A stretch of DNA of 64,000 nucleotides from Fulvia fulva (Eukaryota > Ascomycota > Dothideomycetes > Mycosphaerellales > Mycosphaerellaceae). The DNA lies in assembly GCF_020509005.1 (NCBI RefSeq), contig NC_063018.1, forward strand, positions 1,178,001 through 1,242,000. Reading direction: 5' to 3'. The notes under the pieces were generated by a model. The model searched no databases, was not told the DNA's origin, and saw nothing but the letters and a program-made list of their open reading frames with translations. Position 1 is the first letter of the stretch. Each line of letters opens with the position of its first letter. Made by a program: the position numbers and the translations under genes. This document shows positions 30,259 to 60,658 of the stretch, one piece after another.

Positions 30259-31331
30259 CTCGATCTGCCGTTTTCTGTGATGGACAGAGGAAATAGGAAT
30301 AAGAAAAGCCACAAAACAGCGGCCATACTTACTGTAGCCCTTAGTGTGACCCAATGACAATGCCGAGACAGCACGAGGCAATGTTAGTCCGACTGTCTTA
30401 CCAAACCCAACGGCGATCGTACCTCTCGATGCAAGCATGATGCATGGCAACGGCATCGGTCTCGCATATTTCGGCGCAGTATGCAGCAAAGTACTGCTAC
30501 TTACTGGTTGTGGCAAGAGTCGTGCCTGGCAGATCCTGGACACTTTTGCGGGGGTCCGAACCGTGCGCCTGCCAAGTGAATGACCTGGCACGCGTCATAC
30601 GGACCAAAGCGCCCACCTCCACCAAAAAACAACACCACATCTTCAATCGTGTTTTCTTTATCCAATATCAGGCCCATTGCAACCAGCAAATTTATATACG
30701 TATCTGCATACATCACTGAACAAATTGTCGTGCTTGGATTGGCTATATGTGGTGTTGTTGTCGCATGCTACCGTCGCAAACTTTGCACCTGTTTCTTGGA
30801 TTGGAGAAGCTACTGCAAGATGACCAAACACCTTTCAACACCTCAAAAGAATCAGACAGTAGGAGCCTATCACTACTGCAGACTTAAGGGCATCAAGTGC
30901 TCGCAAAGAGACTTTGTTAAGACCTTCAAACCGCTCTTCGCACCCACACGGCATCAGGTGCGCAATGCTCTGGACACTGCAGGCTCAAGACAGCCATATC
31001 ACCCGAGAGAGTGGAGAATATCATATTCAGCAGGGGTCAGAAGAACTGCAGTAGATACACATTGTGACTATAGACGCAGCAGAACGAAGAACAAGGTGGT
31101 GTGGATGTGAATAGAGAGATAGAACAACACCTTCAGAAATGAGCATAATCCCACCAGTTGTTTTGGGCGGTTTGGTCAGTGTGGAGCGTGCCTCGATGAC
31201 TTCACCTGCCTGAACTTCGCAGTCTTTTCACCCGACAGCGACATTAGCTTCTGCTTCTTCAACCTCACTCGTCTGATCGTGAACCAGGGCCATCGGTAGT
31301 TGTCCGACACGGCTGTTAGCAAGGCACATCA
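30259..31331. other. intergenic, no supported gene
   Basis: About 1.07 kb between divergent start codons, so both promoters lie here. One 176-codon plus frame (30580-31110) has no motif, odd composition and no splice partners, and I do not accept it as a gene. Confidence 0.45.
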
Positions 31332-35141: not shown

Positions 35142-35458
35142 GCTGGTGCAAGGAGACGAGCAGTCACGATGCTAATGTCTGGTAGGACTCGGTGTGAAAG
35201 TCATCCCATCGAGCTCGAGTCCAGAGTCTCGCATCCGCATCCGATCCGACATCGGCAGCGCAACTTCCATCTTCCTTCAACGCGTCTAGCAACCGACACT
35301 TTCTATACCATCGACCTTGATCTAGGCTCCTGCTCACCGATGATGATGGTGCTGCTGGCATGAGACGCCTCATCGGTATACCTGATCTGTCTCCCAAGCG
35401 CTGGTCCTTGTTGTCGCATCACGCTCGCTCCCGCCACTTCCATTCTCATCGCCACAAC
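35142..35458. promoter_or_regulatory. divergent promoter region
   Basis: 317 bp between the start codons of SFH5 (minus) and the HET gene (plus). Pyrimidine-rich stretches occur toward the HET start. No specific element can be named. Confidence 0.35.
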
Positions 35459-36662
35459 ATGATCAGACTCATCAACGCCTCTTCGCTCTACTTCGACGAG
35501 TTTGAGGGCGACTTCGTCCCTCCGTACGCTGTGCTCTCACACCGCTGGGGTGCTCGAAAGGATGAGGTCACATCTGAGGACTTCCAGAGTGGCCTGAAGA
35601 AAGACAGCCCGGGCTTCAAGAAGATCGATCAATTCTGCAAACACGCCTCCGATACGGGCCGTAAGTGGGTCTGGGTCGACACTTGCTGCATTGACAAAAA
35701 GTCGTCAGCTGAGCTGTCTGAATCCATCAGTTCCATGTTCAGTTGGTATCAGAAAGCCGATATATGCTTTGCTTACCTGCAGCATGTCGAGAATGCCGAG
35801 ACCTGGCGTGAAAGTGCTTGGTGGAAGCGAGGCTGGACGCTACAGGAGCTGATTGCACCTGACAATGTTGTCTTTTGCGATCGGGCATGGCGAGAGATAG
35901 GCTCGAAACATGGCATGGCCAACGATATCGCTACGCTGGCCAACATCCCACCGCGGGTGCTCAAGGTTCGGGGCAGGTATCGGCACTACACCGTTGCACA
36001 AAAGCTTTCATGGGCCGCCGGAAGAGCGACTACGAAACCCGAAGATCGAGCATACTCCCTTCTTGGTTTGTTCCACATCAACATGCCACTATTGTACGGA
36101 GAGGGCACCAGCGCTTTCCAGAGGCTACAGATCGAGATCCTACAGAAGTACTCTGATGAATCGCTCTTCGCATGGTCCAGAAGTAGCAAAGGTCCACATC
36201 TAGTCTTGGCGCATACGCCCGACTCCTTCCAAGGCTGCGGTGACATGGCACCACTATCGCTGCAAGAAGAGTCAGAATCTTACGCCAGACATCAAAGAAG
36301 ACGTGCCTAAGCACCATCGTGCTGTGCATCCTCCACGTGCGACAAGCTGGGGTATCGAGATCTGTGCTAATGCTAGGAAACTTGTGCCACTTGTAGAGCG
36401 CCCGATTCGTCACCAAGGCAGAGTTCAGGAGTTCTTGTGGTCTGTGACGCTCACCACTGCCTGGGCGGGCCAGATACGAGAACTGCCGTGCACTATACTC
36501 CTGGTGCGCAGCGGACCGGCGCCTTACAACTACAAGCGATTTGACCGCTATGTTGGCAATACACGCGAGTGCATGGAAAGGCTCTGCGAACAGTTCGATG
36601 TGTGCGAGCTCGAGGCAGACAAGATATTCTACTTGCAATTTGATGCTGATTTCGCCTACTGA
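35459..36662 (+). CDS. HET-domain protein, apparently intact
   Basis: Predicted 384-residue heterokaryon-incompatibility family protein. The start at 35459 gives MIRLINASSLYFDEFEG, the usual opening of HET proteins of the HET-E/D type. The core motifs are complete: PPYAVLSHRWG, FCKHASDTGRKWVWVDTCCID, SWYQKADICFAYL, WWKRGWTLQELIAPDNVVF and PEDRAYSLLGLFHINMPLLYGEG. A 49-nt GT-AG segment (36240-36288) restores the frame to the remaining conserved region, but its branch site is weak, so a frameshift at the same place is an alternative. There is no NACHT, WD or ankyrin tail. The family's known role is cell death on non-self recognition; this member's partner is unknown. Confidence 0.75.
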
Positions 36663-37197: not shown

Positions 37198-40100
37198 ATG
37201 CAAGGACTAGCTTTCATACTCTCATTACAATGGCTGCTGAGCACAGCCAACGCGAGGTCTTTAGGTGAGCTGGCAGTTGCGACGCGATTAGAGGCTTTGC
37301 TGATGAGCACAGTTCCAGTCATTACTGTCACAGCTCACCGGTCGTGCTCCACCCCAGCAAGCCCGACCCTACCAGCATACGGATGGATTTCAACGAATGG
37401 AACGGTAATCCCTTACACCTTTACTGCTGACGATGTGCAAACAGAACTGGAAGGCGGATACTCGCCGGCCCTTACAAAATCCGACAGTCATTTGGAGCAG
37501 CCACAGTCGCCCATCACAGAAATCGCCATTACTACAAATGGCCAAACGATCACGGCTGCCGACTAAGTGGGCTCGGTGGTGCTACAGCACGGATTTTCGC
37601 AAATTACCCTCAGGGATGGGTCACGGACAGTCTTCGCCGGGCAGACCGTTAGCGCCCTTCAGAACGGCGACGGTGTGGTCTTGCTTGGCTCCAACACCCA
37701 GTTCTTCGGCTCTTCCTCAACCAGGCTTATCACAGCCAATGGTCATATATTCACAGCGGTCGACTATCAAGGATCGATGGTCCTTATTGACGGCACATCG
37801 ACTATCACTCTTCGGAGTGGAGCATCCACAACATTCGGCGGAAAGACAATAAGTGCGTTGGATTCTGGCGACGGAGTGGCGATTGGCGAGCCGATCACGA
37901 GTCTCTTCAACCCAGTACAAGTCCAAGTCACTCTTGGGAGCGGTGGTAATGTCATCACGGCTATAGCCACCAACAGCTCTGTGATTCTGCAGGTCGGATC
38001 ATCCACCATCACTATTGGCAACGGTGCACAGACGACCATCGCTAGCCAGACTGTCAGTGTCCTACCCGGCGGCAATGGTGTAGTATTCGATGGGTCAATC
38101 ACGAGCACGTTTGGGGCATCGTCGACAGCTCCGCAGGCAGGTGCTTACCCGACTCCGGCGATTCCATCTGCGACCACTAGGACCCTCAGTACTGGGAGTG
38201 CTCAACAGGCGAGCGTCACGATCAGTAGTCTTGTTCCGGGCGGCGGCGCATCTCCATCCATCAATGACGCGGTGCCAATTGCTGCACCTCAGACTGGTCT
38301 TGCCGGCCCACAATCAAGCTCCCAGTCGCTTGACAGCTCCGCAATGCCTACTCCTGCCGCCAGCTCAGATGACGACCTCCCATGTCCCATTCCTGGGGCA
38401 TCCTATGGCTACACTGTCCCATCAAGCGGCAGTCAATATGTCGTTCAGTGTAACACGACCCATGGAGGCTCTGTGTACCAGATTCTCATGACGGCGGAAA
38501 TAGGCGCCTGCCTTGATGCATGCAACGACGATATCCGCTGCGACGCTGTAGGCTATGACCTTGGGGCAGACCTCTGCTATGAGTACAATGCGCTATCTGC
38601 AGGGAACGGATACTTCTCGCCTACGATGCACTTTGCCCAGTTGAGGTCACGAGCGGTGGTCAAGGATGGTTTCACGTCGCTCGAACCAGTATTGATCTCG
38701 ACGTACTCTACTAGTGGTCTGATGACCAGCTATCCGAGCAATGGGGCACCTATTTTGACACCATCTCTTATTACCTCGGTGCGCGGCGGCATCACGACGC
38801 TCTCGACTTACACCACGCTTGTCGGCTCTTCCACCGTTGCTCGGACGCAGACCATCGTCAATGGAGGTGTGACCTCGATCAGCACGACCTATGCCACCCC
38901 CAACTCGGGGCCGTCGCTGGCTGCGTCGATTTTACCTGCGTCCTCTCCGACGCCTTCGAGCATCTTGAGCAACGCGGGCAGTGCAGCGGTACCTGTCACT
39001 TACGGCAGTCCCATTACGACAATGACCACTGTCCTTGGTGGTCAAACTTTGGTATCCACATATGCTACACTCTCTGGATCGTCCACGGCGGTCGAAACCT
39101 CGACTTCGGTCTTAGGTGGTCAGACTCTGACTATTACCGCCTACGTCACACCAACGACGACCGTAGGACAAGTAGGTTCCATCGGTCAGTCTATCGTTTC
39201 ACAGACTTCCTCTGGATCTAGTGCCATGCCAGGTATCGTGACCGTGGTCGCAGACCCCAGCAACACAGCACCTCTCACTATCGGCAGCCAGATCGCCATA
39301 CCCATTGCATCTGGTGCATATGTTCTGCCTAAAGGAGCCACCCTTGCTCCTGGCGGTTCGGCTGCAACGATTGTTGGTACTACGTACACTCTTGCTCCAT
39401 CAAGAAGCCCTGCTCCCGGTATTGCCACGTTGACAGTACCATCAGGCACGAGCGTGCCGATTACTATTGGAGACCAAGTTGCATCACCAGTCGCTTCCGG
39501 CGCCTACGTACTCCCCAACGGAAGCACTCTTTCTGCTGGTGGTCCTGCGGCGACGATCGACGGTGTCACCTACACTCTTGCACCGAATGCGGCCCAAGAC
39601 CAGGGCATTGTCACCTTGACTGTCAGTTCTGGTCAGAGTGCTCCGATTACGGTTGGCAGTCAGCTTGCCACTCCAATCGCATCTGGTGCGTTTGTTCTTC
39701 CCGGTGGTCAAACGCTTTCCCCTGGTGGCTCTGCCTTCACATCGGACGGCGTTGCGTATACCTTAGCCCCATCAAACCCCACGCTGATCACCTTGACGCC
39801 TGGTTCCGTGCAAGATTCACTCATCATAGTCGGCACTCAGATCGCTACACCCAATGCTTCTGGTGCCTTTGTGCTTCCTGGAGGCCAGACATTATCGGCA
39901 GGGGGCCCTGCCATCACGGTCGACGATGTCGTCTATACCTTAGCACCATCGGCTGCTGCTGTCGCTTCATCTGTCATCACCTTGACAGCAGGCCAGTTCC
40001 CGAATGCACCCATTACTATCGGCAGTCAAGTCATCACGCCCGCTTCTGGAGCCTATGTTTTACCTGGAGGACAGACACTTACCCCAGGCGGATCCGCAGT

Positions 40101-43100
40101 CTCTTTTGATGGCGTTGTATACACCCTGCCGCCAGTAGCGACCCCGAACCCATCAGCGATACTCACTCTCACGAGCGATCCGCGCCAAAGCACTCTCCTC
40201 GCCATTGGTGGTCAGCTAGCCACACCATTGCCTTCGGGAGCTTTCGTGCTACCTGACGGCCAGACTCTGTTCCCCGGAGGTCCAGCTGTAACGGTTGATG
40301 GTGCTGTGTACACTCTGGCACCCGCGACAAGCCGGATTCAGCCCGGTATCGCTACGCTGACTGCCGGATCCCTGCCTATCTCCATTGGCAGTCAAATCGT
40401 CAGTCCAATTGGACCGGGCGTTGATGTGCTTCCAGGCGGTCAGACATTGTCGCCTGGAGGCTCAGCTGTCGCACTTGATGGAACGACATACACCCTCGCA
40501 CCAGCACCAACTCGAGCGGCCGACGCGTTCACTTTGACTGAAGCTGGTGGTTCGGCACCACTGATCGTCGGTGGGCAAACGGCAGCACCGATTGGACCTG
40601 AAACTTATACGCTTCCCAATGGACAGTCACTCTACGTTGGTGGTCCTGCCGTCACGTTGAATGACGCGACATACACGCTGGCATCACCGACTAGTCAAAC
40701 GCCAGCGAGCGTGGTCACGCTTTCTCCTGGGTCAGGAAATGCTGCTGTCATCACATTTAATGGACAAGCCATATCTCCGGCGGCTTCTGGTCAATACGTG
40801 CTGCCAGGAGGTCAGACCCTGTCTCCGGGAGGCTCAGCTGTGGTCCTTGATGGCACTACCTACACATTGCCTGGATTTGCCACTTCTACCACTACGCGGA
40901 ACATTCCGGTCCCCGCTGGACTTACCACGGCGATACCAGGCGCATCTCAAGGAAGCAGTTTCGTTCTGCTGTTACCAGGATCTACGATTGGTCCTGGATC
41001 TTCAGCAGTATACTCTGGTACGACATATTCGTTGCCGACTTCGGGCAGTGGACTGTACACCAATGGCCAGTCCGTCGCCCTTCCCACTACAGCACCCGGA
41101 TCGCCTATCACGTTGTCCAACGGTGTCGTTATCGATTCAGCAACAACGTTCAGCGGCGGTGTCTCCAGTGGTGAGCCTCTGGTAATATTGCCGGGAGTCA
41201 CCCTATTGCCTGGCTTAGCAGCTGTCATATCGAGCACAGCCTACTCGCTTCCTACCTCGGGTAACAATGTCTACATTGATGGATCGCCGTATGCTATTCC
41301 GACAGTGGCTCCTGGCGCTCCGATCACTCTCCCGAACAGTGTCGAAGCAACACCGACAGTTGTGCCTAATGTGGTTCTTGGCACGCAGACTCTGTTGCCA
41401 GGAGGCGCACCTTTGACAGTCTCCGGGAGTACGTACTCATTGAGCGGCAGCGAAGTCGTGGTAGCAGGGCCATCGACTACATTCAATGTGGCTTTGACTG
41501 GACAAGCTCCAAGTCCCTCTCAAGCATCGTCAACTTCGATAAATGGAGAAGCCGCTTCACCCGGCACACCACCAGCATTGACGATCCATGGCAGCACATA
41601 CACTGCACAGTCTACTTCTGCTGGTCAGCTCGCTAGCTACTTGGTCAACGGCCAAGTTCTGACGCCAGGAGGCACGATCGCGAGCACCGACACCGTTGGA
41701 GCACTTGAGACACTTTCTCTTGACCCTGCTGGCACAGCAGTCGCCTTCATCGCCCAGGGCAGCACTACCATCTGACGAATATCGACAGTGGGGCCGCAGA
41801 GTATAGCTCAAAGCACCACGAGCATTCCTCAGGCCTCGGCCTCTGTCCTTTCAACTGCTACGCCGATTCTGACCGTCGACGGCAATACTTTCACGCCCAT
41901 TTCATACACACCTGGTGGCCTACCGACGTATGTAGTCAACAGCCAGACGCTTACGCCAGGCGGCACAATTATCGCCACGGACTCATCTGGTACCTTGGAG
42001 ACCCTGTCACTTGTCCCAGCGGGGACTGCGGTCGTCGTCATTGCTCAAAGCACGACGATTACTTCTCAACTCATCGAATCAGCCCCGACGAGTGCTCCAG
42101 CCTTGACGGGAGCTCCAATCTTGGCGGATGCTCCTCTGATCACGATCGGCGGCACGACGTACACTGCAGTGTCATACACTCAAGGCAGCCGACCCACTTT
42201 CCTAGTCAATGGCCAGACTCTGTCGCCTGGAGGGCAGATCAGTACTCCCCTGTCGAATGGTGTAACTGCTGTTTCATTGGATCCCACTGGATCTTTCATA
42301 GCATTCGTCGCGCCCAGCACCACACTCGTCTCGGAAATTGCTCTAGCACCTACGCATGGGCCAGAACAAGTACCGCTGCCAGTTCTGACCATCAAGAGCA
42401 ATACCTACACTGCAGCCCCGGACTCTGGAGTTGGTGTGCCTACTTATGTAATACAAGGGCAGACTCTTACGCCCGGAGGACAGATAAGCACCTCAATGCA
42501 AGGCGGCGTGAATGCCATCTCACTAGATTTATCTGGCTATGCTTTGAAATCCATCGCAGAGACCACTACAAGAATGTCTCAAATCGCTTCATCGGCATTG
42601 AACAGCCCAGCAACAACGAGTGCTCCAGTGCTGAGTATTCATGGCAACACGTATACAGCAATGGCGAACACCGCAGGTGGTCTACCTACGTACATGATTG
42701 AAGGCCAGACTTTAACGCCCGGAGGCATGATCTCTACGGCGCTTCCTGGAGGTGTTACAGCTATCTCTCTAGATCCTGGAGGAACGGCTGTAGCCTTCGT
42801 CGGCCAGACCAGCACAAGCACATCGCGATTAGATGTTTTGAGTACCTCCACTGGCTCGCCTTCCACCATCCCGCCAGTCTTGACGATCAACGGCGACACG
42901 TTCACTGCTGTCTCATATGCTCAAGGTGGTCAGCCCACCTACCTCGTGAATGGGCAGACATTGACTCCGGGAGGTCAGATCTCGACGACACTCCCCGGAG
43001 GCATCAGTGCCATCTCATTGGAGAGCACGTCAAGCGCCCTGCAGTTCCTTGGGGACAACACGGTGCTTACTTCGCAGATCACCACGTCGACGATCGCTGC

Positions 43101-46100
43101 ATCAGGAACAGACCCATCGGACATGCCAACATTGACATTCAATGGCGATACATATACTGCGACTGTGTTTAGCGATGACGCTGGCGTTGCGTACATCATC
43201 GATAGCCAGACATTGATGCCCGGTGGCGCCATTACCCTTACCGGGTCAAATGGTGTGAACACGGTCCAGTTCGACAATGCCGATTCTTCACTCATCGCTT
43301 CGAATGCTGATAGCACCACGACTCTCGCGGCACCAGGGTTCAACGTTGTTAGCCAAACGGATGTCTCAACCCAGTCAATGCCTGCTGCGCCGGCGCAAAG
43401 TATTGGCTTCCAACCGACTGCTCAGCCCACTGGATCGCAAGAGCAGCCTACGCTGAGCCCTGTGCCAAGCGTCCCGACACCTTCTGCTACATCCTCCGAG
43501 ACTGCTATCAGTCTTTCAGCTGCTACATCACCGTACGTTACGAGCTCTATGTCTTCGCGTTCCCGTACAAGGACAACGTCAAGCGCTTCCGGCCTCGTTG
43601 AGAGCCAAGGACCAATGACCACCTACATGTCTGGCGGTACGACTTTGGCAACCACCATTGGAGGTAGCACAAGGATTATGTCGATGAGCACCCGGGTCAT
43701 GATCACAACACCAATGGTCGTCGTAACACTGACAGAGGATGGGTCCACAAGCATGTCAATATCGACAGGGTCTGCGTACTCGATCACAAGAGACGCCACC
43801 GTTCGGACGATGGTGATGGGAGGCGTCAGGACATCCTACGTGACTGGCGGTACGACCGTGGTGGCACCAAGTACCCTGATTGACCCTTCTAGTGCCCCGT
43901 CAGCCACAAATGTGGTGGCCGAACAACGCATCGGGATGTGTCCTGAGTATAATGGCTTACTGTACAGCTCCGAAGAACGCTCCGGGTCAGCGCTCGTCAC
44001 TTGCGGCAATATCTACGAAGGTCAAGTGGCGGCCAATGACACGGAGGTCGATGCAGAGGGCTGTGATTACTCTTGCGTCGATATGTTGGATTGTATGGCT
44101 TTCTCATACACCGAGAACGGCTGCAACCTCTACAGCGACGTATCTGGGATGCGCATCAGCGAGGTTCCTGTGTTCTCGGCGCTACGCCTTCGAACGGTGC
44201 AGAAGGCTGTCGATACAACTACGCTTAGTGCTATGCCATCGACTACGGCAACGACTTCGAGTGGCTTCATGTCTAGTCTGGCTAGCTTGTTCAGCAGTGC
44301 TCTGGGTCGTTCGAGCACTGACCTGAGCACCACCACGATATCGAGTGACTCCAGTCCAGTATCAAGTAACCTTCCATCAGACGAGTCACCATCCACCGAT
44401 CAAGAAGCCAGCTCTGGTGCTTCAGGACCAGCCACATTGACAGACATGGACATCGAGCCGGGCCAGACTACGTCTGCGGTCACGGGAACGTCGAACCTGG
44501 CGGAGACCATAACTTCAACCGGCGAAGAGCCTTTGGTGAAGACTATTCATGAAGGATCTACTCTCACCTACGAATCGGATGGAACAACCTACACCAGTGT
44601 AGCACAAAGCGAGATTGTAACATTCATGCCGGATTCTGAGGTTCCGATCAGCCAACAAGACACTACTTCGCTGGCCGGAGCAGGCCCTTCTAGCTTCATC
44701 ATAACATACATCACTGGCGGCAGTACTTTGACTTATGTTTCCGCTGGCCGGACATACACATCAGTGGAGGGAGAAAGCGTAATTGCATCAAGTGGTTTTG
44801 GTGTTGCACCGACGCCGCAGCTACCCAACATGGAGGCAACATCAAACTTTGGCACGACACCACTCTTCACAGCGACTTTCGTCACAGGTGGGAGTACAAC
44901 GACTTTCTCCTCAGGTGGACAGCTATACACCTCTGTTGATGGTGGAACCATCGTCGAGACCGTGGCTGATGGTCCTCTTTTGTCCGACCTGCCATGTCAA
45001 TCAGGCTGTCTTCTGCCCACGACGGCGGTCCCTGGAGCATCAGCCAGCTCTGCTACATCCGGTGCACAGAGCATCGCTAACGACACACTCATAGCCGCTG
45101 AAGGCTCGATCGGAGCTACGGATCTGCCCGCGTCGACAGGAAGCCTGGCCGACAGCTCAGATCTGTCAGGATCGACCTCCGACAGCACGCCGTCTCTCGC
45201 AGCCAGTCATTCGACAAGCTCGCCGCCGAGCATATCTGTTCCGGATCTTGAAGTGACTATGAGTTTGCCATCGATCACTCCGGCTTCGATAACTGAACTT
45301 GGAACCATCTCGACCGTCTGGGGCTTTCAAATCTCGTATGCATGGCCTTCGATGGTCATAGTGGATGGAAGCATCACTGTTACATCCACGCCAAGCCCCA
45401 CGAGCGGAGCTGGTAGCTCGGCGCCGACCTCAATGACAAGCTCCGCCTCCAGGACCGTCACTACCAACGCAGAGACGGAATTGAGTTCGTCGAGTTCAGC
45501 TGACGATGCTTTTTCGATCAGCGCAACAGGGCCATCTTCTAGCCTGTCCGCCTCGCCCTCTAGCATGTGTCAAGCAGATACAGTCGGGGGCCAGGTTTTG
45601 CAGAATAGCGACTTCTGTACGGATGACATGAGCGGTTGGAGCAGTGGTATTTCGTCAGAAGTCGACCCTGCTGGCAACACATCTGCGCCAGGTAGTACTT
45701 CGTCAGGACGAGCAACAGTCGCTGTCATCAGTCGTCGTGCAGTGATCTCCTACGCACGATCCACGACAGAAGAGCCGACCTCCGCATGGATAGGGCAGCC
45801 TATCAATGCCACCGAGGGAGGTGTATACAACGTGACAGCCAATCTCTGGATCACCATGCCGGACGATACTAGCTCTGTCAGTTTCGTAATGCTTCAACTT
45901 GGCAACACGACCGTTTTCAGCACCGGCAATATCACCGCTTCGCAGAACTACACTATAAGCGTAAATGGAGCGGCTACCTCGGACATGACAGCCTTCCGCC
46001 TGATCTCGGCATACTCTGGTGAGCAGGAGGGTGCTGTAGCATTGGACAATGTCTACGTCTCGTTTGGATCAAGCAATGCGCCTTTGCCGGTGAACAGCGA

Positions 46101-49100
46101 CACTCACATTGCAATGACCGCAACTTCGAGTCCTGACACCACAAATACAGCGCTATCTGATTCTACATTGGCTGCATCGTCAGGCGAGGACCTTTCTCCG
46201 CTATCGTCATATGCCTTGGGTTCGGGGCCTGTAGCGGCTGACAGCGGCACTCAAACCGCCATGACCACACCTTCAAGTCCTGATATTACAGCTTCGACGC
46301 TTTCCGGCGCTACATTTACTGCATCACCAAGCCTGGAGCTCCTTCCGTTATCGTCCATGTCGGCCTCGGAGCCATATCTCCCATCGACGAGCTCGCCGGA
46401 TATGGACACGGCTGCACAACCGCTGACGGCCGACCTATCAGCCGCCGATCTTTCCTTGGTCTCTCAATCGAGCTCTGTAATATCCACACAGTTGCCTACG
46501 AGCTCTACCGCAGCCACGGACTTGACGTTAGGTGTTATTGCATCTAGCGATGCAACGCAGTCACCTGCAGAGGACAGTCACTTGGCCTCTTTGACCGACT
46601 CTGCTACATCGGGGCCTACCCCTGTGGATATCACCACATCCCAGGCTAGTATGGGCTCCGCTGGGCCCCAGGCTTCCGACTTGGGCGCCATCGTCTCATC
46701 TACAAGCACTTCTAGCCTGACGACCTTGGCTGCTGCACTTCCAACAGTCTCCGGCTCTGCTGTCTGTCCAGATAATGATGGAAATACCTACGACGCCACC
46801 GATGGCTCACAATACACCGTCCTCTGCAACCAAGAATACGATACGCAAAGAATGATGACAGTCGATTCTCCAACCCTAGACGACTGTATCAATCAATGCG
46901 CAGGCCAAGCGCAATGTATGGGCACGACTTACTCAATCGCGAACGGTACCTGCCAGGTCAGCTCCAGCATGTCTTCGAGCAACAAGCAGTCCAATGCTAG
47001 AGTGGCTAGCGTGTTGCGTGTTCGAGCTCCCACTGTTGCACAGGCTAATGTTCAGACTGTCCTTAATCCGACGTTCATTGATGACACTCTTTCCCCATGG
47101 GTCGCTGCTGGTGCATCGGACGGCTCGAACTTCGCCGCGATCAGCAACACCGCTTCCGCCAGCTTCAACTTCTCACAGTTGGCCAATGAAAATGTGTACA
47201 ATGGCGGTACACCACAAGCGACCGTCTGGCTGCGACAGTGGGTCAATGTCACCATGGGATACTCCTACTTCGTTTCCATGAACGTCAACTTGACCAACGG
47301 AGGAGACAACACTTGTCAGATCGGTATGATGTCTGGCGTCCAGAGTCTTGTGTCGTATAGCTTCCCAGTCGGTCAATCATATTACGGGTCCATCAACGGT
47401 AGCGGAATCATTACGAATGAGGGCACGGATTATGCCATGATCTACGGCTCTTGCTCAGGCAACTTCGATACCACGATCAGCGTTTTCAATATCGTCTGGA
47501 ACGCCTGGCCACCAGTATCAAATGTTGCTAGTACCGACAACGGGGTCTCTTCCGGGTCGCCTATCAACATGGAAGCGCCAGCCACTTTGACGAGTCAACT
47601 GCCGCAAATGGATATAAACACTCAACTGCCAGCGCCAGTCAGCAGCCTCGACGAAGTCACTTCTTCTGCTACGCAACCAATCGTGGCAATTGGAGACTTG
47701 CCGTTCTTTGCGCCAAGCACGACTACTACAATATCGCTCAACAATGCGGAGAGCACAATCGAAGCGACTACTGGCGGCGCTGTCAACGGTCTGAGCAGCA
47801 TCATCGAAGAGATCTCATCGTCAGCAGTCAATCCGACCTCGGTTCCAGCCGCGGATCTGACTTCTTCAAACACGTTGATCACCGGCAGCGATGCCATTCC
47901 CTCGTCTATGATATCCGATGCCACAGCGACGGTGCCAAATAGTAACGAGGCCCCGAATACCAACCTTGTGGACAGCACACCATTGTCTTCGATATCATCC
48001 AAGGCACCATTTCCTACAGCGAGCTTCGAAGTTGCTATCCAGACGAGCATCGCGATCAGCACCGAAAGCACCTCGCCTGCTACACCACCTGGCAGTGGTA
48101 TAGGCTTTGGCACACCAATAGTATCCAGTGGCATCAACCAACAGGCATCGCCCGTTGCTACCTTGATCAACTCCCAGACATCAGCCACGACATCCATACT
48201 GACGGACTCTGTCCCTTTCCTGTCTACTAGCAGCACGGGCATTATGGCCTTGCCATCGTCCAGCATGCTGGGTCTGGGATCAATCAGCTCCAGCGCGACT
48301 GCAGTGATTGCGAATCCATCAGCGGTTGTTCCTTCCTCCGTGGCCTCTCCAGCGGCTCCCACCAGCACACTCTGTCCAGGCTACAGCAATTGCACGTACA
48401 CAGGTCGTGATGGATCTACCTACCTCATCGTGACCGCGCAAGTATACGAGTCTTTGACCATCCCCGGCATTCCAGCTTTTCTGGCTGTCAGTCTTGCTGT
48501 CTGCATAGACTTCTGCACCTTGCAAGGGACTCAATGTCAAGGTGTGAGTTGGAGGCCAGATACACAGCAGTGTCGACTCAAGGCCAACATGATCCCCACG
48601 GGCAACACAACGTATCCGTCCGTCGGTGCGATCAGAATGAGCAGCTCGCTTGCGATCTCGGCGGAAGTGCTTGTGAACGGCGCTTTCGCGGCTGGAATGG
48701 CTAGCTGGACCACGTTTACGACGGGGGTTACGGATTTGGTGGTGAGGCTGTTGAACTTGGTCTTGGGGATCTTGGGCGGGGGAGTGTAAGTCTGCATCTT
48801 GTCACAATGTAGCAGACATTTTTACTAACAATTCATAGTGGTTGCATCGCCCGGCTTCCAGGTCTTGGCGGGCTGCTCAACACGCTACTCAGCCCGCTTG
48901 AGCTCGTTCTGGTGCAGACCGTCAACGTCGCCGCCGGCTACTCCTTCTTCCTCCAAGCCGATCTCATCATCGTCAACGCCAACTTCAACACCGACGCATC
49001 TTGCTGGATCTACTTCCGCTCCGAGAACGAAGTCCTTTGGTCAGGCCTGTATGACCGCACCTCCACGGCAAGCACGATCTATGGAAGCGGGACGCTCGCG

Positions 49101-49691
49101 GCTGTGGCAACTAGATTCCAAGCGGCCGCTCAGTGCAATGGCACGACAGATCTGACCGTCACCTTCGACAACCTCTCGTGGAAAACGTACCCTCGCGCGA
49201 TAGGGATCAGTCCGATCAATCTGCAACCCATGTTTGCACTTACCAACAGCGCCTTCAATACTGCTCTAGGCGCAGCCAATGGTGCCTGGAGAATTGGCGC
49301 TGGCACAACAAGCACTATCGCCACCACGATATCTGGAGGTCTAGCATCAATGTACTGGGGCGCAATCTCCGCCACGCCGACCATCTCTACACTGCTACAG
49401 GATCTGGCCGTCGGCGCTCAAGCAAACCAGAACTTCGCGTTGACCGCGTTAGTGACAGTCACGATCCCGCCTGGTCTGCTTGGTGGCCTTGCGCTTTGTT
49501 CTGCAGGGATCTACTTGAACGAGTCGCTTTGGGCGAGTGGTGCGTTGGCTGCTTCGCAGACTTTCAATGTCAATGCGAGAGGCACGCTGAAGAACGATGC
49601 GACGCAGCTGAGTCTGTGGGCGCAGTGTTCCGGGAGCTCGCCGCCGAGGGTTACGTGGGATAATGTTGATTTGACGCTGAATCCGGCGTGA
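37198..49691 (+). CDS. giant secreted multi-repeat surface protein, interrupted by two in-frame stops
   Basis: Single reading frame of about 4,130 codons after splicing, beginning with a signal peptide (MQGLAFILSLQWLLSTANA). Introns: 37265-37312 (48 nt, in frame) and 48786-48838 (53 nt). Order of parts: three 'A' modules (about 37504-38115); a Cys-rich apple/PAN-like segment (38380-38660); a Thr/Ser region; nine 'B' repeats of about 50 residues; divergent B-like modules; seven 'C' repeats of about 85 residues (41572-43332); Ser/Thr mucin-like stretches; a second PAN-like segment (43930-44200); three short 'D' repeats; a beta-sandwich, CBM-like module (45560-46080); mucin linker; a third PAN-like segment with CBM-like module (46760-47515); a fourth PAN-like segment; and final beta modules ending at 49691. 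TAA at 37564-37566 and TGA at 41773-41775 interrupt the frame. No GPI or membrane anchor is seen at the end. Probable role: cell-wall or adhesive surface protein, by composition only. If the stops are real, translation ends after about 105 residues. Confidence 0.75.
37504..38115 (+). repeat. 'A' modules, three tandem copies
   Basis: Three copies of about 60 residues with the pattern NGxxxTA...GSxVLxxGxSxITLxxGxxTxFAGQTVSAL..GDGV. The first copy contains the TAA stop where the second copy has Tyr (VDYQGS). The third copy is the most divergent. Beta-rich by composition. Confidence 0.75.
39225..40880 (+). repeat. 'B' tandem repeats, nine clear copies
   Basis: About 50-residue repeats with core PITIGSQxATPIASGAYV, then LPGGQTLSPGGSAVT and DGVTYTLAP. 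Copies differ at both DNA and protein level and spacing stays regular, so they are old and diverged rather than recently expanded. Looser relatives continue to about 41470. Confidence 0.85.
41572..43332 (+). repeat. 'C' tandem repeats, seven copies
   Basis: About 85-residue repeats: PVLTINGNTYTAVSYTQGG, then PTYLVNGQTLTPGGQISTTL, then GGVTAISLDPTGTAVAFVA and STTxTSQ. They share the GQTLTPGG core with the B repeats. The first copy ends at the TGA stop. Confidence 0.85.
44530..44970 (+). repeat. 'D' short repeats, three copies
   Basis: Three copies of a pattern like TYITGGSTLTYVSAGRTYTS, spaced by about 60 residues of variable linker. Confidence 0.6.
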
Positions 49692-50673
49692 TGATTGATG
49701 ATTGATGTTTTGGGGGTTTGGGATTTAGCAGGCTGTGTGGAGTTTGATGGGCGGTGGTGTTGTCTTGATGCGGAATCCGGATATCGTGTTGGAAGTCAGA
49801 TGTTTACAGTTATAGACAATGTCAAGGATGTTAGATCCTGGCGTGAGAACACTAAAAGGCGTTTGTTAGTCATTCGTGATACCACTTTGCCAGCATCACA
49901 AGGCTGAGACAGCCTACAGGGAATGCCGATAGGCAAAAATGCTTGGCCGTTGACTTCGGCATCGCAATCGCAGTCGTGGGCACAGTATTTCATGCCAAGA
50001 TGAAGCACCAGGTTGTAGCAATCACGTGGTGTTGAGTAATGGTCAACAAGATGTACATAACCGAAACTCGTAAATGCGAGCGAGCACTCTGCAGGTGTGC
50101 AGGCAGGCCCAACCATCTGCACATGCAAGCGCACGACCTGCACACGGCATCTGGATACAGTCCCTGCCGAAGCGCCTGTCCGATCAAATGATCGAACAGG
50201 CGCCGTAGCGCGGTAGAAGGATTGTGGAAGCATGGCATCATCGCCGGATCTGCTTAGCTCATATTTCTCTGCGATCGAAAAACAAGGAGGAAGGTCCCTC
50301 GGTCGCAACGACTGCTGCTGGAAGGAAGAAAGTGCGGCCGCCATGGTCCTCCGTCGCGGCGTCGCCGCTGACCAACAAGTCAACAGAAAGTCTAGGTAGA
50401 GCTACTGTACGGGCATGCACGCGCGGAGATTAGGGTCCCAGGTCATGGCTTCACTTCGATGACTTCAGCATCTTTGTTGATACCGTGCCTTTTCCCGATA
50501 ATGCTGTAGCATCGCAGGACATCGTGCCACCTGGTACTTCTTCACTTTTGTCATCGCTACCGGCCGAGCGCGCTGGCCGATAGCGGAGCTGCGACTCTCG
50601 AAGTCCGACGATTCGAAGATTCAGTAGTCTCACGACGAAGCAGGAGCGCAGGCGCTCTTCCCACAACGACAGC
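49692..50673. other. intergenic with a perfect-loop hairpin
   Basis: About 980 bp without a supported gene between the giant gene and the ARA2-like gene. Short frames on both strands carry no motif. A strong inverted repeat lies at 50172-50203 and is listed separately. Confidence 0.45.
50172..50203. other. inverted repeat able to form a hairpin
   Basis: GCGCCTGTCCGATC and its complement flank a short AAAT-type loop. The 14-bp arms have a single mismatch. It lies about 470 bp upstream of the ARA2-like start and could be a binding site, an RNA hairpin or a small transposon scar. Confidence 0.5.
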
Positions 50674-52008
50674 ATGGCGAGCGACGAACAGAAGGTGTTG
50701 CTTTCGAGTGTGCTGCCGCCATTGATTTTCGGCACTGCGACGTTCAATTACCAGTACAACCCCGACCCGTACGAATTGGACCCGCCAGGACTCGTCAAGA
50801 CTGCGTTGGAGCACGGCATTAGAGCCTTCGATACATCGCCTTACTACGGTCCTTCGGAAGACATTCTCGGCGCTGCCCTCGATACCGACTTCGTTCACGA
50901 GAATTTCCCGCGCAATGACTTCTTCCTCATCACGAAATGCGGTCGCATCGCCAACGACGAATTCGACTATTCGAAAGAGTGGGTGCGACACAGCGTACAG
51001 CGCAGTCTTCAGCGACTACAGACACCATACCTCGATTTGGTCTATTGTCATGACGTGGAGTTTGTCACAGAAGACGAGGTTATGGAAGCGATACGCGAGC
51101 TACGGAGAATACGAGACGAGGAAGGGACGATCAAATACGTTGGTATCTCTGGGTACCCGGTGCCAGTGCTGTGCTCGCTCGCGACTCGAGTTCTGCGCGA
51201 GACGGGCGAGCCACTCGATGCGGTAATGTCGTATGCGAACTACACGCTGCAGAATCAACTGCTTGCATCTACGGGCATCAAGCAATTGAAAGAGGCAGGC
51301 GTGGACGTTGTGCCCAACGCCTCCCCACTCGGCATGGGACTCCTGCGACGAGGCGGCGTACCTGTCGGTAGTATGGGCAATTGGCATCCAGCCAGCAACG
51401 GCCTCCGCGCAGCCGTCAAACGCGCCAGCGACTTCTGCGACCGCCACGACGAGAAGCTCGAAGTCATCGCCATCCGCTACGCCCTCGAGCAGTGGCTCAA
51501 GATCGGCGCATCAGTAGGCTCACGCGGCGACCCTGCCTCTGGCATTCCCTGGAAGCGCGAGTCCAATGCGCAAGTCGGCGGCGACAGACTGGGTGTGAGT
51601 GTTATAGGCGTGAGCAAAGCCGGCGAACTCGAAAAGACGATGCAAGTCTGGCGCAGTATCCTCGACGGCCTCGAGAACGGTGCAGAGACAGCACGTCTCG
51701 CAGGTCGGTGGAAGCGCGACCACGAGTGGAGTCTCAACCGTCAGAGAGCTGTGCAGATTCTCGCCGATGGGATTCAAGAGCATTTGGATGAGTACCTCGA
51801 TTATACGTGGGCGAGTGGGAACGATGCGGGCACTCGAGGTGCTGCAGAGGGCTGGACGCCTTTTGTGAACAAGCGTGCGAAGTCGAAGCAGGCGGCGGGA
51901 AATGGTACCCAGTCCGAAGATGCGCCTCCGCCATGGTTGACCCCTGCGCAAAGTCCGCAACCCAATCATGAGCCCGATGAGATACCCCCGACGCTGCCTT
52001 TGCGATAA
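50674..52008 (+). CDS. ARA2: D-arabinose 1-dehydrogenase (NAD-dependent), ARA2-like aldo-keto reductase
   Basis: Predicted 444-residue aldo-keto reductase. Fungal ARA2 oxidises D-arabinose to D-arabinono-1,4-lactone with NAD, the step before D-erythroascorbate synthesis. The start at 50674 is the first ATG. The AKR catalytic tetrad is visible: Asp in RAFDTSPYYG, Tyr in YYGPSEDIL, Lys in FLITKCGRI and His in LVYCHDVEF. The barrel continues with KYVGISGYPVPVL, SYANYTLQNQ, NASPLGMGLL and the cofactor-site VIGVSKAGELEKTM. The last 60 residues are a Pro/Gln-rich tail not needed for the fold and longer than in yeast. The frame is intact and has no introns. Confidence 0.88.
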   Translation: MASDEQKVLLSSVLPPLIFGTATFNYQYNPDPYELDPPGLVKTALEHGIRAFDTSPYYGPSEDILGAALDTDFVHENFPRNDFFLITKCGRIANDEFDYSKEWVRHSVQRSLQRLQTPYLDLVYCHDVEFVTEDEVMEAIRELRRIRDEEGTIKYVGISGYPVPVLCSLATRVLRETGEPLDAVMSYANYTLQNQLLASTGIKQLKEAGVDVVPNASPLGMGLLRRGGVPVGSMGNWHPASNGLRAAVKRASDFCDRHDEKLEVIAIRYALEQWLKIGASVGSRGDPASGIPWKRESNAQVGGDRLGVSVIGVSKAGELEKTMQVWRSILDGLENGAETARLAGRWKRDHEWSLNRQRAVQILADGIQEHLDEYLDYTWASGNDAGTRGAAEGWTPFVNKRAKSKQAAGNGTQSEDAPPPWLTPAQSPQPNHEPDEIPPTLPLR

Positions 52009-52555
52009 AAGGCGGGATCGAATGATGCGCTCCAATGCAATGGGATGGGTTGGCGTCGATGGTGCAATGGGGCATGTGAGATGTTTATATCAGCCTAATC
52101 GTGGCTGCGTGCCAGGGTGAGCATCAACAGGACGATGGGTGTACATACTTGCATCTTGCCTTGGAGGAACGGCGGTCAGACTCCAGGCAGCTACATGACT
52201 GAAGATAGAGATGTTGAAACGTGCATTCGCGTCGTGTGAGCGAGGAGCGGAAGCTCATCCTGACAATGTTGTTGCTGATCTTGCTACTTGCAGCACGTTG
52301 AATGTTTCCACTTGCACGTGTGAGAAGGATGCCCGACCAGGAACATGCACAGCAGCAGCACAGATGCAATGATATGCACGGCGCTAGTCCGGATGATCTG
52401 GAGACTTGATACCTGAGGATGACATCAAGCATGGCTATTATTAATCTAGTAGCTCTTAATACTTGAAAATAAAGCTCGTATAGTTCTCGTAGACTAGGTA
52501 TTCAATATAAGCGCTACGTAATATATATATACCTTAAGAACTTACTATTAACGTA
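52009..52555. other. 3' flank and AT-rich border of the transposon nest
   Basis: To about 52434 this is ordinary 3' flank without a gene. From there composition switches abruptly to TA-rich DNA nearly without CA/TG dinucleotides, the footprint of RIP, before the pogo element begins. Confidence 0.5.
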
Positions 52556-52622
52556 ACGTACTTCACTACCGAGCGGGCTATACTACCGAGCGGGCCACTT
52601 TTGCTAAGAACTGTACCACTTC
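52556..52622 (+). repeat. terminal inverted repeat of the pogo element, left
   Basis: Begins ACGTACTTCACTACCGAG. Within it, ACTACCGAGCGGGC occurs twice, about 16 bp apart. Matches the complement of 60592-60658 except for transitions. Confidence 0.85.
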
Positions 52623-52639
52623 TATAGATACAGCTATGC

Positions 52640-53893
52640 AACCACTATTACAGCGTATATTGTCTTTAAACGAGGCCAAACTGTCCTTAGCTGTCTAGGC
52701 TACGAAACGCGACGCGACAATTACGAATCGACTTGCTCTAAAGGTATACGACGCGTCTCGAACTACACTAGGGTATCGATTGAATAGACGACCTCCTCGG
52801 GGTGACTACGAGCCTAATTCGAAGAAGCTTATAGAGCTAGAGGAGAGGGTGATACTTAAGTATATACTCGAGCTAGATCTTAGAGGTTTTCCGCTATAAA
52901 AGGCTAGTATACGAGCAATAGCCGATTTATTACTATAAGAGAAGGGTCTTAAGCCCGCTAGTCTCAATTAGACAGACAGGTTCATTAGGCGGCATCGTGA
53001 GCTAAAGGTTCGTATAATACGTAGATACGATCGTTAGCGAGCCCTAATAGAAGATCTAGACGTTATCGAGAAGTAGTTCTTACTTATACGTAATATAAAG
53101 GGGAAGTATAGCATCCTTAACTAGGACACCTATAACTTCGACGAGATAGGGTTTATAATAGGTGTTATTACGTCTTAGAGCGTTGTTACGGGTTTAAAAA
53201 GGCGTAGTAGAAAGAGGAAGGTCGTTTAATAGGGTAATAGAGAATAGGCAACAGTAATTAAGACTATCTATATAGACGGAATAGCGCTCCTACCCTACGT
53301 CATCCTTATAGGTATATAGCACATTAGTACCTAGTACTAAGACGGCAACTTAGGTCTAGACTAGACAATCGGGCTAATAGAGAACGGCTAGACTAATAAT
53401 AAGTTCGGTATACGGTAGCTAGAGTATTTCTAGAAGTATACTATAGCTCGTACGACTAGGGCATAGAGACTACTTATTATCGATAGCTACGAGAGCTATA
53501 ACTCGAAGGCATTCTAGAATCTATATAAGGAATACAAGATCTTGGCCCTATATATACTATCGTACGCCTCGTACTTACTCTAGCTATTAGATATAGGTTA
53601 CTATTCGCCTTTAAAGAAGGTATACGGTGCTTAGCTCTCGGGCTTAGTACGCTAGCGCATTACTTATATCGATAAAGTAGAGTTCCTACGCGCCTTCCGG
53701 GCAGCCTATAACGCTGTATTTAGACAGGAGAACATCTTATCGAGCTTCAGAGGCGCTAGTTTGGTTCTATTTAATCTATAGGTAGTAATAGATAAGCTTA
53801 ATATTAAGCTATATACGCTAACCCCTCTAGCTCCGGACTCTACCCCTTAGGAGTCGAAGACACTACGAACTATAAAAGAATTCTACTCTTAAT
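52640..53893 (+). pseudogene. pogo/Fot1 transposase remnant
   Basis: Conceptual reading through the stops shows the typical order of pogo transposases. An N-terminal helix-turn-helix and CENP-B-like part includes LELDLRGFPL, IRAIADLLL and FIRRHREL. The DDE catalytic part follows: YNFDEIGFIIGVI with the first Asp, then LLIIDSYESYNS with the second, and YYSPLKKVYG. Numerous stops replace Trp and Gln. The C-terminal end continues on the far side of the retrotransposon (about 60081-60412). Not translatable. Confidence 0.8.
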
Positions 53894-53933
53894 CGACACT
53901 AGTAACAAACAAAATACGTGCCCGGGCAGGTTT

Positions 53934-53938
53934 ATCGC
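53934..53938. repeat. 5-bp target duplication, left
   Basis: ATCGC directly precedes the left LTR and directly follows the right LTR (60076-60080). Confidence 0.85.
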
Positions 53939-54381
53939 TGTCAGGGCGAGAGCCTAGCCTGTGAGATGTAAGGGTGAAAGCGAGAATGCAGGTGCGAAGT
54001 GCAGATGCAAAAGGGCATGGTATGATTGCTACACAAAACAAAAGACGAAGAAAGCAAGAGAGGCCTGGGGAAGGCCAGATATTTATACGCGACCCTCGCG
54101 AGTGCGTGTCCCCGCATCAACAGGGCTAACCCGTGCGAAGCCGCGCTCAGCAGCTTTGCTCAAAACCTTATTCCAACCTGCCCTACGATCCGAGTCTTCC
54201 ACGTGCTTCAAGGTTTGGTAGAGGGGTGAATCTGGAGGGCTGGGTCCCGTAGTGAATGTTGCGGGGCATGTGATTCTTGGCGTTCACACACCAAGCTGGA
54301 CTGTCACTTCTTGACGACTTCTGAGCGCTCTGAGACTCTTCTGTCCCCACCTTCTGTACACTCTGTGGGGAGACCATGACA
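53939..54381 (-). repeat. LTR (3' LTR of the element)
   Basis: 443 bp, TGTCA...TGACA. The end of pol runs into this LTR and stops at 54183. An apparent 86-codon frame inside is repeated identically in the other LTR and is not a gene. Confidence 0.9.
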
Positions 54382-57300
54382 GTAGCCCCCCCGAACAAAG
54401 CTGAGTTCCTACGAAGCCGTAGTAGTTCCACATATCGAGGATGTTCAGCTTCAGTACCAGGCCTAGGCCTGATGTCATGGTCGATACACCATTGGTAAGC
54501 CCCGTCGAAAAGCTCAGATTCGAAGAGCCTGCCGATGTTGACTTCTGGGCCGTCTGCGCGGGCGTGGTATTCTTCGATTGCTTGACGATTGAAGATGATA
54601 TGTTGGATAGGTTCCCATGAGGTATCCCACTCAGGGCAACCTTGCCATTCGACTTCATACTTGATCGGCGGTAGTCCTTCAACGTCGTTGGGCTCTACGC
54701 GGATTCCCCGGATCTTGCGGACGGCATAGTCGTCAGAAGGTAGGTTAACAGGCTCGTCGACTTCTACTTCATCGGGAGGACCTGGCATGTCTTGGTTTTG
54801 GTTCGGGAATGGGTCCTCAGCCGACGGCCGAAGGCGTACGGGATGGAAGACGTCGTGGATCTTTATGTTCGCAGGAAGAGCTAGACGGTAGGCGTGTGAA
54901 CTGATACGCTCGGTGATCTCAAAAGGACCTAGGTTCTTCCAGTTCAGCTTCTTGGAGGGGCGGTCTGTCTTGATGTTCTTGGAGTTGAGGTAGACCATAT
55001 CGCCTACTTGGTAGTCGGGAGCTGGCTGGCGACGACGATTGGCTTGATCCTCGTAGATTGCTTGTGCGTACACCATCTCGTCGTGAACTTCTTCATGGAT
55101 CTGTGAGAGCATAGTAGCGAACTCGTCTGCTGCTTGCTCGTTTGCGTCTTCGGTAGGCGGGAGAGGTTCTTCTGGTTCCATGCCTGTACGAGGGTGGTAA
55201 CCTCTCGTAGTATAGAAGGGAGAGTAGCCAGTAGTCTCCGAGTCCCAGTTACGAGTAGCGAACTCTACCGCAGGGATATGCTGAGGCCAATCCTTCTGGT
55301 GGTAGTCGACGAAGCAACGAAGGACCTGCTCGAGGATAGCGTTCGTAATTTCGGTCTGGCCGTCGGTCTGTGGCTGAAAACTGGTCGAGAGGTTATGCTT
55401 GATGCCTAGGATAGCACACAGACGCTTCCAGAAGTGCGAGATGAACTGGGTGCCTCTGTCAGAGGTGATGCTATCCGGGAGGCCTTGAAAGCGCCAGACG
55501 AATTCGTAGAACAAGCGAGCAGTCTCCTTTGCGGTCATGCTCCAGCACGGGATCATGTACCGGTCCTTGGAGTGACGGTCCACGATCACTAGAAGGGCCT
55601 TTGCTTTCACGCCGCTGAAGGTCTTGCCGTGAGGAAGATCGGTGATAAAGTCCATAGTGATGTGCTTCCACGGACGATCAGGAGCCGGGAGAGGGTGCAA
55701 GAGACCGTGGGGACGGTGGCGGTTAGCTTTGGCTCTTCGGCAAGTAGCGCAGTTCAGCACGTAGCGGCGGACGTCCTTCCAGGAATGCGGCCACCAGTAA
55801 TACCTAGCGAGGAGCTTGTGGGTCTTGGCTACGCCTGGGTGACCCCCAGAGGCGGAGTCGTGGATGATTTGAAGAATCTCAGCTCGGATATTAGAGCCTT
55901 CGGGCTGCGGTACGTAAAGCTTCTTACGGAAGTAGACGACACCTTCCTGGAGCTCGCACTCGGACAGCGAGAAGCCCGGGAATGTCCTCGCGCCAGATCT
56001 AAGGGCCTGAACTAACTCTTGGGCGTCTATGTCGGCATCGTACGCTGTTCGTACTCGTGCCATGATGCCTTCGGGCTGCTCCTCATTATCAAACCCCTCA
56101 AAGTCTGATTCGGATGAGCCGTCGGTCGTTACTGAGCCCTCTTCATCGTCGTTCAAGTCCTCAGCGTCCGAGGCGTATTCTTCAGGCTCGGATTCATCGT
56201 CACTCTCGTCAAGGTAGGCAGGAGCGAGCACGAGAGTAGCAAAGGAAGCGGCGAGCGTAGGCTGGCCGTTCGATAGGTACTCTCGAAGCTCGGAAGAGAG
56301 GTTGTGCTCTTTGATGACTTGTTGCCCTGCGATTTGCCGGCCCCCTCTTCGATCAACTGGAGAGTCTCCAGGGCGGCGGGTAAGGGCGTCGGCCATCGAG
56401 TTGGCCTTGCCGGGCGTGTACGAGATCACGAAGTTGAACCGGGAGAGGAACTCGCTCCAGCGGGCCTGGCGACGATTGAGCAGCTTGCTCTTCATAAAGT
56501 AGACGAGGTTCTTATGGTCGGAGCTTACTTGGACGGGCATAGCAGAGCCTTCGAGCTCGGGGCGCCACTCTTCGAAAGCTTTGACGATGGCGAGAAGCTC
56601 CTTGTCGTAGATCTCGTAGTTACACTCCGTGGCGGTCAACTTCTTGGAGAGGAAGGCGACAGGTAACCAGGGGGATTCAGGCGAGCGGCGTTGTAGCAGG
56701 ACACCGCCCACCACGCCGTCGGATGCGTCGGTCTCTACACGGGTCTCCAGTTCGAAATCGAAGTGCTGTAGAAGCGGGTTCTCAACAAACTTCGCTTTGA
56801 GCAAGTCAAAAGCCTCCTGGCATTCGTCGGTCCAGGCGAACTTCTCACCCTTGCGCGTGAGCTTCGTCAAAGGGCGTACCACGCCCGAAAATGCGTGGAT
56901 GAAGCGGCGGTAGAAGTTGGCAAAGCCTAGGAAACCCTGGACCTCTTTGACGTTCGTAGGAGCATCCCATTCGACGATAGCGTCGATCTTCTCTTGGTCC
57001 ATCTTGATGCCGTCTGCGGTAATGATCAAACCAAGGAACTTGACTTCGGTCTTCTCAAACTCGCACTTGTCGATATCGAGCTGCAAGCCGGCGTCTGCGA
57101 GCTTCTGAAGGACCTTACAGACGTGCTCGCGGTGCTCCTCCTTGGTCTCGCTGTAGACTAGGATGTCGTCGATGTAGGCAGTGCAGAACTGATCGAGGAA
57201 CTCCTGAAGGATGTCGTTAATGAAGTTCTGGAAGGTACTAGGCCCGTTACAAACGCCGAAGGGCATAACGAGCGACTCGAACAGCCCGTAGCGAGTACGG

Positions 57301-59590: not shown

Positions 59591-59632
59591 GAGGATGACT
59601 CGAGTGGTTGACGGTTTGTTGGTCTTTTGTGA

Positions 59633-60075
59633 TGTCAGGGCGAGAGCCTGGCCTGTGAGATGTAAGGGTGAAAGCGAGAATGCAGGTGCGAAGTGCAGAT
59701 GCAAAAGGGCATGGTATGATTGCTACACAAAACAAAAGACGAAGAAAGCAAGAGAGGCCTGGGGAAGGCCAGATATTTATACGCGACCCTCGCGAGTGCG
59801 TGTCCCCGCATCAACAGGGCTAACCCGTGCGAAGCCGCGCTCAGCAGCTTTGCTCAAAACCTTATTCCAACCTGCCCTACGATCCGAGTCTTCCACGTGC
59901 TTCAAGGTTTGGTAGAGGGGTGAATCTGGAGGGCTGGGTCCCGTAGTGAATGTTGCGGGGCATGTGATTCTTGGCGTTCACACACCAAGCTGGACTGTCA
60001 CTTCTTGACGACTTCTGAGCGCTCTGAGACTCTTCTGTCCCCACCTTCTGTACACTCTGTGGGGAGACCATGACA
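59633..60075 (-). repeat. LTR (5' LTR of the element)
   Basis: 443 bp, nearly identical to 53939-54381. The presumed primer-binding region lies at about 59615-59632, but I cannot match it to a particular tRNA. Confidence 0.9.
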
Positions 60076-60080
60076 ATCGC
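60076..60080. repeat. 5-bp target duplication, right
   Basis: ATCGC, matching 53934-53938. The pogo transposase tail resumes here. Confidence 0.85.
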
Positions 60081-60591: not shown

Positions 60592-60658
60592 GAAGTAGTA
60601 TAGTTCTTAGTAAAAGTAGCCCGCTTAGTAGTATAGCCCGCTCGGTAGTAAAGTACGT
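60592..60658 (-). repeat. terminal inverted repeat of the pogo element, right
   Basis: Inverted partner of 52556-52622, ending ...AAGTACGT next to TA at 60659-60660. Confidence 0.85.

What the first reader, a model, noticed from the sequence alone, without database searches (positions are those of the whole stretch)
37198..49691. A 12.5-kb single-frame gene for a giant mosaic secreted protein
Seen in sequence: one reading frame of about 4,100 codons with a signal peptide, two normal short introns, three families of tandem repeats, mucin-like linkers, four Cys-rich apple/PAN-like segments and several beta-sandwich modules. No membrane or GPI anchor is visible at the end. The combination does not match a protein family I can name. 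Inference: a secreted cell-wall or adhesion protein that presents lectin-like modules on a long repeat stalk.
Basis: partly seen in the sequence, partly recalled or inferred. Interest (0 to 1): 0.75.

Follow-up and report, generated by a model that had tools for sequence, protein, structure and literature searches.

The report
Interrupted giant fungal surface-protein gene

Summary
The window is from Fulvia (Cladosporium) fulva Race 5: its genome has 67,169,167 bases in 14 contigs, exactly the published assembly. The 12.5-kb coding region, two short introns, repeats, four PAN/apple-like segments and related beta-sandwich modules are real. The claim of one open frame is not: in-frame stops lie at 37564-37566 (TAA) and 41773-41775 (TGA). 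Neither stop sits in an intron with better-than-chance signals, while the same test finds the intron around an in-frame stop in a paralogue. A 2616-aa database protein from a 13,431-nt contig equals the last piece with intron 2 removed and starts at the first start codon after the TGA, so RNA exists and the TGA appears to be in it. A Zasmidium protein and a paralogue on contig 10 hold modules from both sides of the stops in one frame, so this was probably one gene. Best reading: a modular wall or adhesion-type protein (beta-bead and Ser/Thr-rich stalk, PAN and lectin-like modules), recently interrupted; ordinary translation would give about 106 residues. Hidden splicing or stop readthrough remain possible but less likely. 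Glycan binding is inferred only.

The parts
37198..37254 (+). signal-peptide-like leader (MQGLAFILSLQWLLSTANA)
   Evidence: read by eye from the translation; no signal-peptide program was available
37265..37312 (+). intron 1, 48 nt (GTGAGC ... CTGAT ... CACAG)
   Evidence: signals; a paralogue shows an intron at the same place by eye, between leader and N-module. No RNA evidence for this one
37313..37452 (+). N-terminal module (VITVTAHRSC...GWISTNGTVIPYTF)
   Evidence: aligns to N-termini of the contig-10 and contig-9 paralogues; z 15.2 and 18.2, 0 of 200 shuffles as good in each
37519..38136 (+). A repeats, 3 units; the first holds the TAA
   Evidence: by eye; stretch right of the TAA against units 2 and 3: 0 of 1000 shuffles as good; 20 residues left of it: 1 of 1000 against unit 2, 269 of 1000 against unit 3
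37564..37566 (+). in-frame TAA stop inside A unit 1
   Evidence: no better-than-chance intron removes it
38368..38670 (+). PAN/apple-like segment 1
   Evidence: PAN_1 13.7 bits, below cut-off; six Cys, alignment with the others
39229..41400 (+). B repeats (9 units) and 2 B-prime units
   Evidence: modelled as small beta units joined by low-confidence linkers; homologues
41518..43400 (+). C repeats, 7 units
41773..41775 (+). in-frame TGA stop at the end of C unit 1
   Evidence: a C-repeat match runs through it to 41787; P0001 begins at the GTG 41788, five codons on
43927..44220 (+). PAN/apple segment 2
   Evidence: 48% identical over 138 aa to the Zasmidium protein P0003; piece 3 as a whole has 3 PAN_1 stretches
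44554..44950 (+). D repeats, 3 short units (STLTY.S.G..YTSV)
   Evidence: five pattern hits, two of them overlapping doubles
45565..46080 (+). beta-sandwich module M1
   Evidence: similar to M2 (z 7.4) and M4 (z 6.1); weakly to M3 (1 of 200 shuffles as good); alignment
46741..47040 (+). PAN/apple segment 3
   Evidence: PAN_1 23.6 bits, cut-off 21.4
47020..47517 (+). beta-sandwich module M2
48349..48663 (+). PAN/apple segment 4
   Evidence: PAN_1 21.2 bits, just under the cut-off 21.4; similar to PAN3, z 11.2
48664..49211 (+). beta-sandwich module M3, split by intron 2
   Evidence: exon-3 part similar to M2 (z 11.8) and M4 (z 8.2)
48786..48838 (+). intron 2, 53 nt (GTAAGT ... CTAAC ... ATAG)
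   Evidence: P0001 is identical to the exons joined here (2615 of 2615 residues after the start)
49212..49688 (+). beta-sandwich module M4, C-terminal; no hydrophobic tail follows

Best explanation
One gene for a large secreted modular surface or wall protein of Fulvia fulva, in which two in-frame stops have arisen recently. Shown: two stops in one otherwise clean frame; a database protein equal to the spliced last piece, starting just after the TGA; relatives with modules from both sides in one frame. Inferred: the ancestral protein was secreted, held PAN and carbohydrate-binding-like modules on a flexible stalk of beta units and Ser/Thr-rich linkers, and bound wall glycans or proteins. In this isolate ribosomes would end at the first stop and release a peptide of about 106 residues (leader included), so the gene would no longer work as a giant adhesin.
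For: Stops at 37564 and 41773 against about 140 expected in a non-coding frame. Repeat homology reaches each stop: right of the TAA and left of the TGA, 0 of 1000 shuffles as good; a C-repeat match runs four codons past the TGA. Splice test: with introns up to 120 nt, 220 of 300 (TAA) and 83 of 300 (TGA) random positions score as well; 0 of 300 for the paralogue's intron. P0001 lacks intron 2 and starts at the first start codon after the TGA. The assembly was polished with Illumina reads (PMC9453070, passages). Two stops and no frameshift in the pieces fit roughly 2% or less neutral point divergence (P of 2 or fewer stops 0.10 at 2%, 0.0001 at 5%). Past purifying selection on unit cores: pN/pS 0.34 (8 of 9 B units) and 0.28 (6 of 7 C units). 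Broken genes are reported in this species (PMC3510045, PMC9453070, PMC10823647, passages).
Against: No expression level, ribosome or protein data were seen, and other isolates could not be examined. Homology on the far side of each stop is partly weak: 20 residues left of the TAA match A unit 2 (1 of 1000 shuffles as good) but not unit 3 (269 of 1000), and the 30 residues right of the TGA look like linker (188 of 1000). The RNA is apparently stable enough to be assembled. A 1402-aa product of the middle piece should also be called on a full-length RNA contig, yet no identical protein of 771-2453 aa was found; unexplained. The region has no RIP signature, so what caused the stops is unknown. 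That P0001's contig is RNA is inferred from the missing intron.
Confidence: 0.6

Rival explanations
1. The stops are bypassed by alternative or unrecognised splicing, giving an in-frame protein somewhat shorter than 4,100 residues.
For: Frame-preserving GT..AG pairs around each stop exist if introns of about 100-400 nt are allowed. A paralogue does hold an in-frame stop inside a 54-nt intron of length 3n. Homology on the far side of each stop is only partly strong. Alternative splicing in this fungus is the subject of PMC11694984 (start of abstract and one passage seen).
Against: Signals are no better than chance: 156 and 48 of 300 random positions score as well with introns up to 200 nt, 248 and 47 of 300 up to 400 nt. 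No GT lies between the conserved end of C unit 1 and the TGA, so such an intron would remove conserved sequence (by eye). P0001 starts just after the TGA, as expected if that RNA kept it.
Confidence: 0.17
2. Both stops are read through at some rate, so one mRNA gives a short, a middle-sized and a giant secreted product.
For: Only two stops and no frameshift in 11.6 kb of frame; past purifying selection on repeat units of both large pieces; apparent RNA.
Against: Neither context matches the UGA-CUA readthrough motif reported in fungi (recalled, no call). Two leaky stops in one gene, one of them UAA, would be unusual. Recent nonsense changes give the same pattern.
Confidence: 0.11
3. Two or three separate genes.
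For: The stops split the region into pieces of 122, 1402 and 2337 codons plus the last exon. The missing 1402-aa database protein is not explained by a single transcript.
Against: Only the first piece shows a leader (by eye). C units lie on both sides of the TGA. P0003 and the contig-10 paralogue hold modules from both sides in one frame. The P0001 contig (13,431 nt) is about 1 kb longer than the whole spliced region (12,393 nt).
Confidence: 0.08
4. The stops are assembly errors.
For: None beyond the oddity of two stops in one long gene.
Against: Polished assembly (PMC9453070, passage); the frame is otherwise intact; for the TGA, the start of P0001 agrees.
Confidence: 0.04

Closest known systems
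Zasmidium cellare PRZ48_008006 (P0003, 'Apple domain-containing protein', 1319 aa)
   Same: PAN1, B-type repeats and PAN2 in the same order in one protein; 34% over the repeats and 48% over 138 aa around PAN2
   Different: At E up to 1e-4 no match to the A repeats (its model starts at PAN1), to the C repeats of piece 3 or to the M modules; its C-terminal end looks unrelated (by eye)
Fulvia fulva paralogues on contig 10 (L021) and contig 9 (L022)
   Same: Same N-terminal module and one PAN-like segment with the four invariant Cys; PAN_1 21.9 bits in L022 (above 21.4), 18.2 in L021 (below)
   Different: Much shorter; own-genome searches with B and C stretches found no match there; L022 has a GLEYA domain (61.5 bits, cut-off 26.2), which the giant gene lacks
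Fungal B-repeat proteins, mostly Dothideomycetes (P0004-P0016 and others)
   Same: Same repeat unit, about 26-39% identical in the aligned parts
   Different: A different N-terminal region by eye; a hydrophobic C-terminal tail by eye in 11 of the 12 printed; P0004-P0016 are 821-1258 aa; no PAN family in their precomputed Pfam column, not scanned further
Ss-Sl2 of Sclerotinia sclerotiorum
   Same: Secreted fungal wall protein with PAN modules; silencing impairs cell integrity and sclerotia (PMC3338822, abstract and section list seen)
   Different: Two putative PAN modules; homology to this gene was not tested

Membership tests
PAN/apple domain | Pfam PAN_1 score above the curated cut-off | tested here: met
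   Piece 3: 45.2 bits against 21.4, 3 stretches. Singly: PAN3 23.6 above; PAN4 21.2 just below; PAN1 13.7 below; PAN2 not scored alone
PAN/apple domain | central C-x3-C pair with further half-cystines | tested here: met
   Four Cys columns, C-x3-C among them, invariant in 7 of 7 rows: 4 window segments, 2 paralogues, P0003. Each window segment has six Cys, but the second Cys of PAN4 is placed differently
GLEYA/PA14 adhesin (Flo/Epa-like lectin head) | GLEYA or PA14 domain | tested here: not met
   Not among Pfam matches of the four pieces at E up to 1, though present in the contig-9 paralogue
GPI-anchored fungal wall adhesin | C-terminal hydrophobic tail with anchor site | tested here: not met
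   Sequence ends ...VTWDNVDLTLNPA, read by eye; no predictor available
Carbohydrate-binding module, CBM4/16-type | CBM-like jelly roll and family profile match | tested here: inconclusive
Carbohydrate-binding module, CBM4/16-type | binds a glycan | not testable with these tools
   needs a binding assay
Fimbrial_PilY2 (PF14481) | Pfam score above the curated cut-off | tested here: inconclusive
   Piece 2 scores 31.2 bits, cut-off 25, but no single stretch passes and the best covers 24 of 75 profile positions; P0003, P0013 and P0018 carry the same precomputed label. I take it as a sum over short repeats, not as membership
   No CFEM match at E up to 1 in the four pieces
Pseudogene | disabling change relative to the ancestral frame | tested here: met
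   TAA and TGA in frame, with coding sequence of one family on both sides and no better-than-chance intron
Pseudogene | no full-length product made | not testable with these tools
   needs proteomics or ribosome profiling

The most novel reading that the evidence does not exclude
The two stops are programmed leaky signals: the fungus sets the length of its surface fibre by readthrough, releasing a short N-terminal peptide, a PAN plus B-repeat form and a full 4,100-residue form from one mRNA.
Probability: 0.08. Interest if true: 0.75.

Novelty: new member of a known kind. Interest (0 to 1): 0.4.

Why it matters
It turns an apparently novel giant secreted protein into a probable case of recent gene loss in a biotrophic plant pathogen, where loss of surface proteins may relate to host adaptation (inference). 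It also outlines a family of fungal surface proteins with a shared N-module, PAN segments and variable stalks and heads, one of which carries a known adhesin domain; my paper searches did not turn up a description of it.

Tried and rejected
PDB sequence searches gave nothing usable: 0 matches for PAN3+M2 and for the C-terminal exon at E up to 1, 0 for alignment A1 at E up to 0.1, and for A2 16 matches with best E 0.24, taken as chance. NCBIfam gave 0 families for 3 pieces. Weak Pfam matches below cut-off were set aside: Cu_amine_oxidN1, PAN_2, PAN_3, PAN_4, Reelin_subrepeat-B, DUF7604, LysM2_NFP; Fimbrial_PilY2 is above its cut-off and is discussed in Membership tests. Foldseek of the B-repeat model: 3 of 113 matches under E 0.001, all with TM by query about 0.1, so no fold match is claimed. 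VIA-align of M2 put unrelated capsid jelly rolls first. The third protein search, with residues 2190-2616 of P0001, found only P0001 among 7,996 scored candidates; this search reaches only close relatives, so more distant ones may exist. Own-genome searches: PAN3+M2 gave four weak further matches, E 3e-4 to 8e-4 (L006-L009), not followed up; the C-terminal exon matched only itself; a B-unit stretch matched only this gene (4 of 4 matches). Of 6 PAN pairs, 3 beat all 200 shuffles and 3 were equalled by 5, 4 and 1. RIP as cause of the stops: no signature in the gene (product 0.67, substrate 1.21). Paper searches listed no paper that I recognised as describing this protein; I saw listings, one abstract with section list (PMC3338822) and passages of four papers (PMC9453070, PMC3510045, PMC10823647, PMC11694984), no supplements.
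Full report
Where it is. The window lies on contig 7 of a genome of 67,169,167 bases in 14 contigs. Size and contig number are exactly those printed for Cladosporium (Fulvia) fulva Race 5 Kim (PMC9453070, passages read), the tomato leaf-mould fungus.

Noticed in passing
54186-59722, minus strand: A Ty3/gypsy-type chromodomain retrotransposon with long open gag (430 codons) and pol (1420 codons: RT, RNase H, integrase, chromo) frames lies about 4.5 kb downstream.
   Followed up: partly
52001-54000 and 60001-64000: AT-rich stretches with a RIP signature (TpA/ApT 1.5-2.2, substrate index 0.67-0.20) border that element, whose own stretch stays below the thresholds used.
   Followed up: no
L022 (contig 9: 1462000-1471900), frames 2864-6127 minus: Paralogue with the same N-module, a PAN and a C-terminal GLEYA domain; it holds a 54-nt intron of length 3n with an in-frame TGA.
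   Followed up: partly
L020 (contig 4: 2506500-2516400), 2223-5861 plus: A 1212-codon open frame with C-type repeats, a Gly/Ser-rich middle and a hydrophobic C-terminal tail (by eye), with no Pfam match above cut-off.
   Followed up: partly
37567-41775: No identical protein for the 1402-codon middle piece was found in the database, although the P0001 contig is long enough to contain it. Unexplained.
   Followed up: no
L006, L007, L008, L009: Four weak PAN-region matches elsewhere in the genome (E 3e-4 to 8e-4; contigs 12, 13, 6 and 13); the one on L007 has a TGA inside.
   Followed up: no
35321-36310 plus and 50584-52008 plus: Neighbours: a HET-domain frame upstream and an aldo/keto reductase frame downstream.
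   Followed up: no
28147-30594 minus and 26551-27627 plus: An alpha-L-rhamnosidase-like frame of 816 codons and an FGGY-type carbohydrate kinase frame.
   Followed up: no
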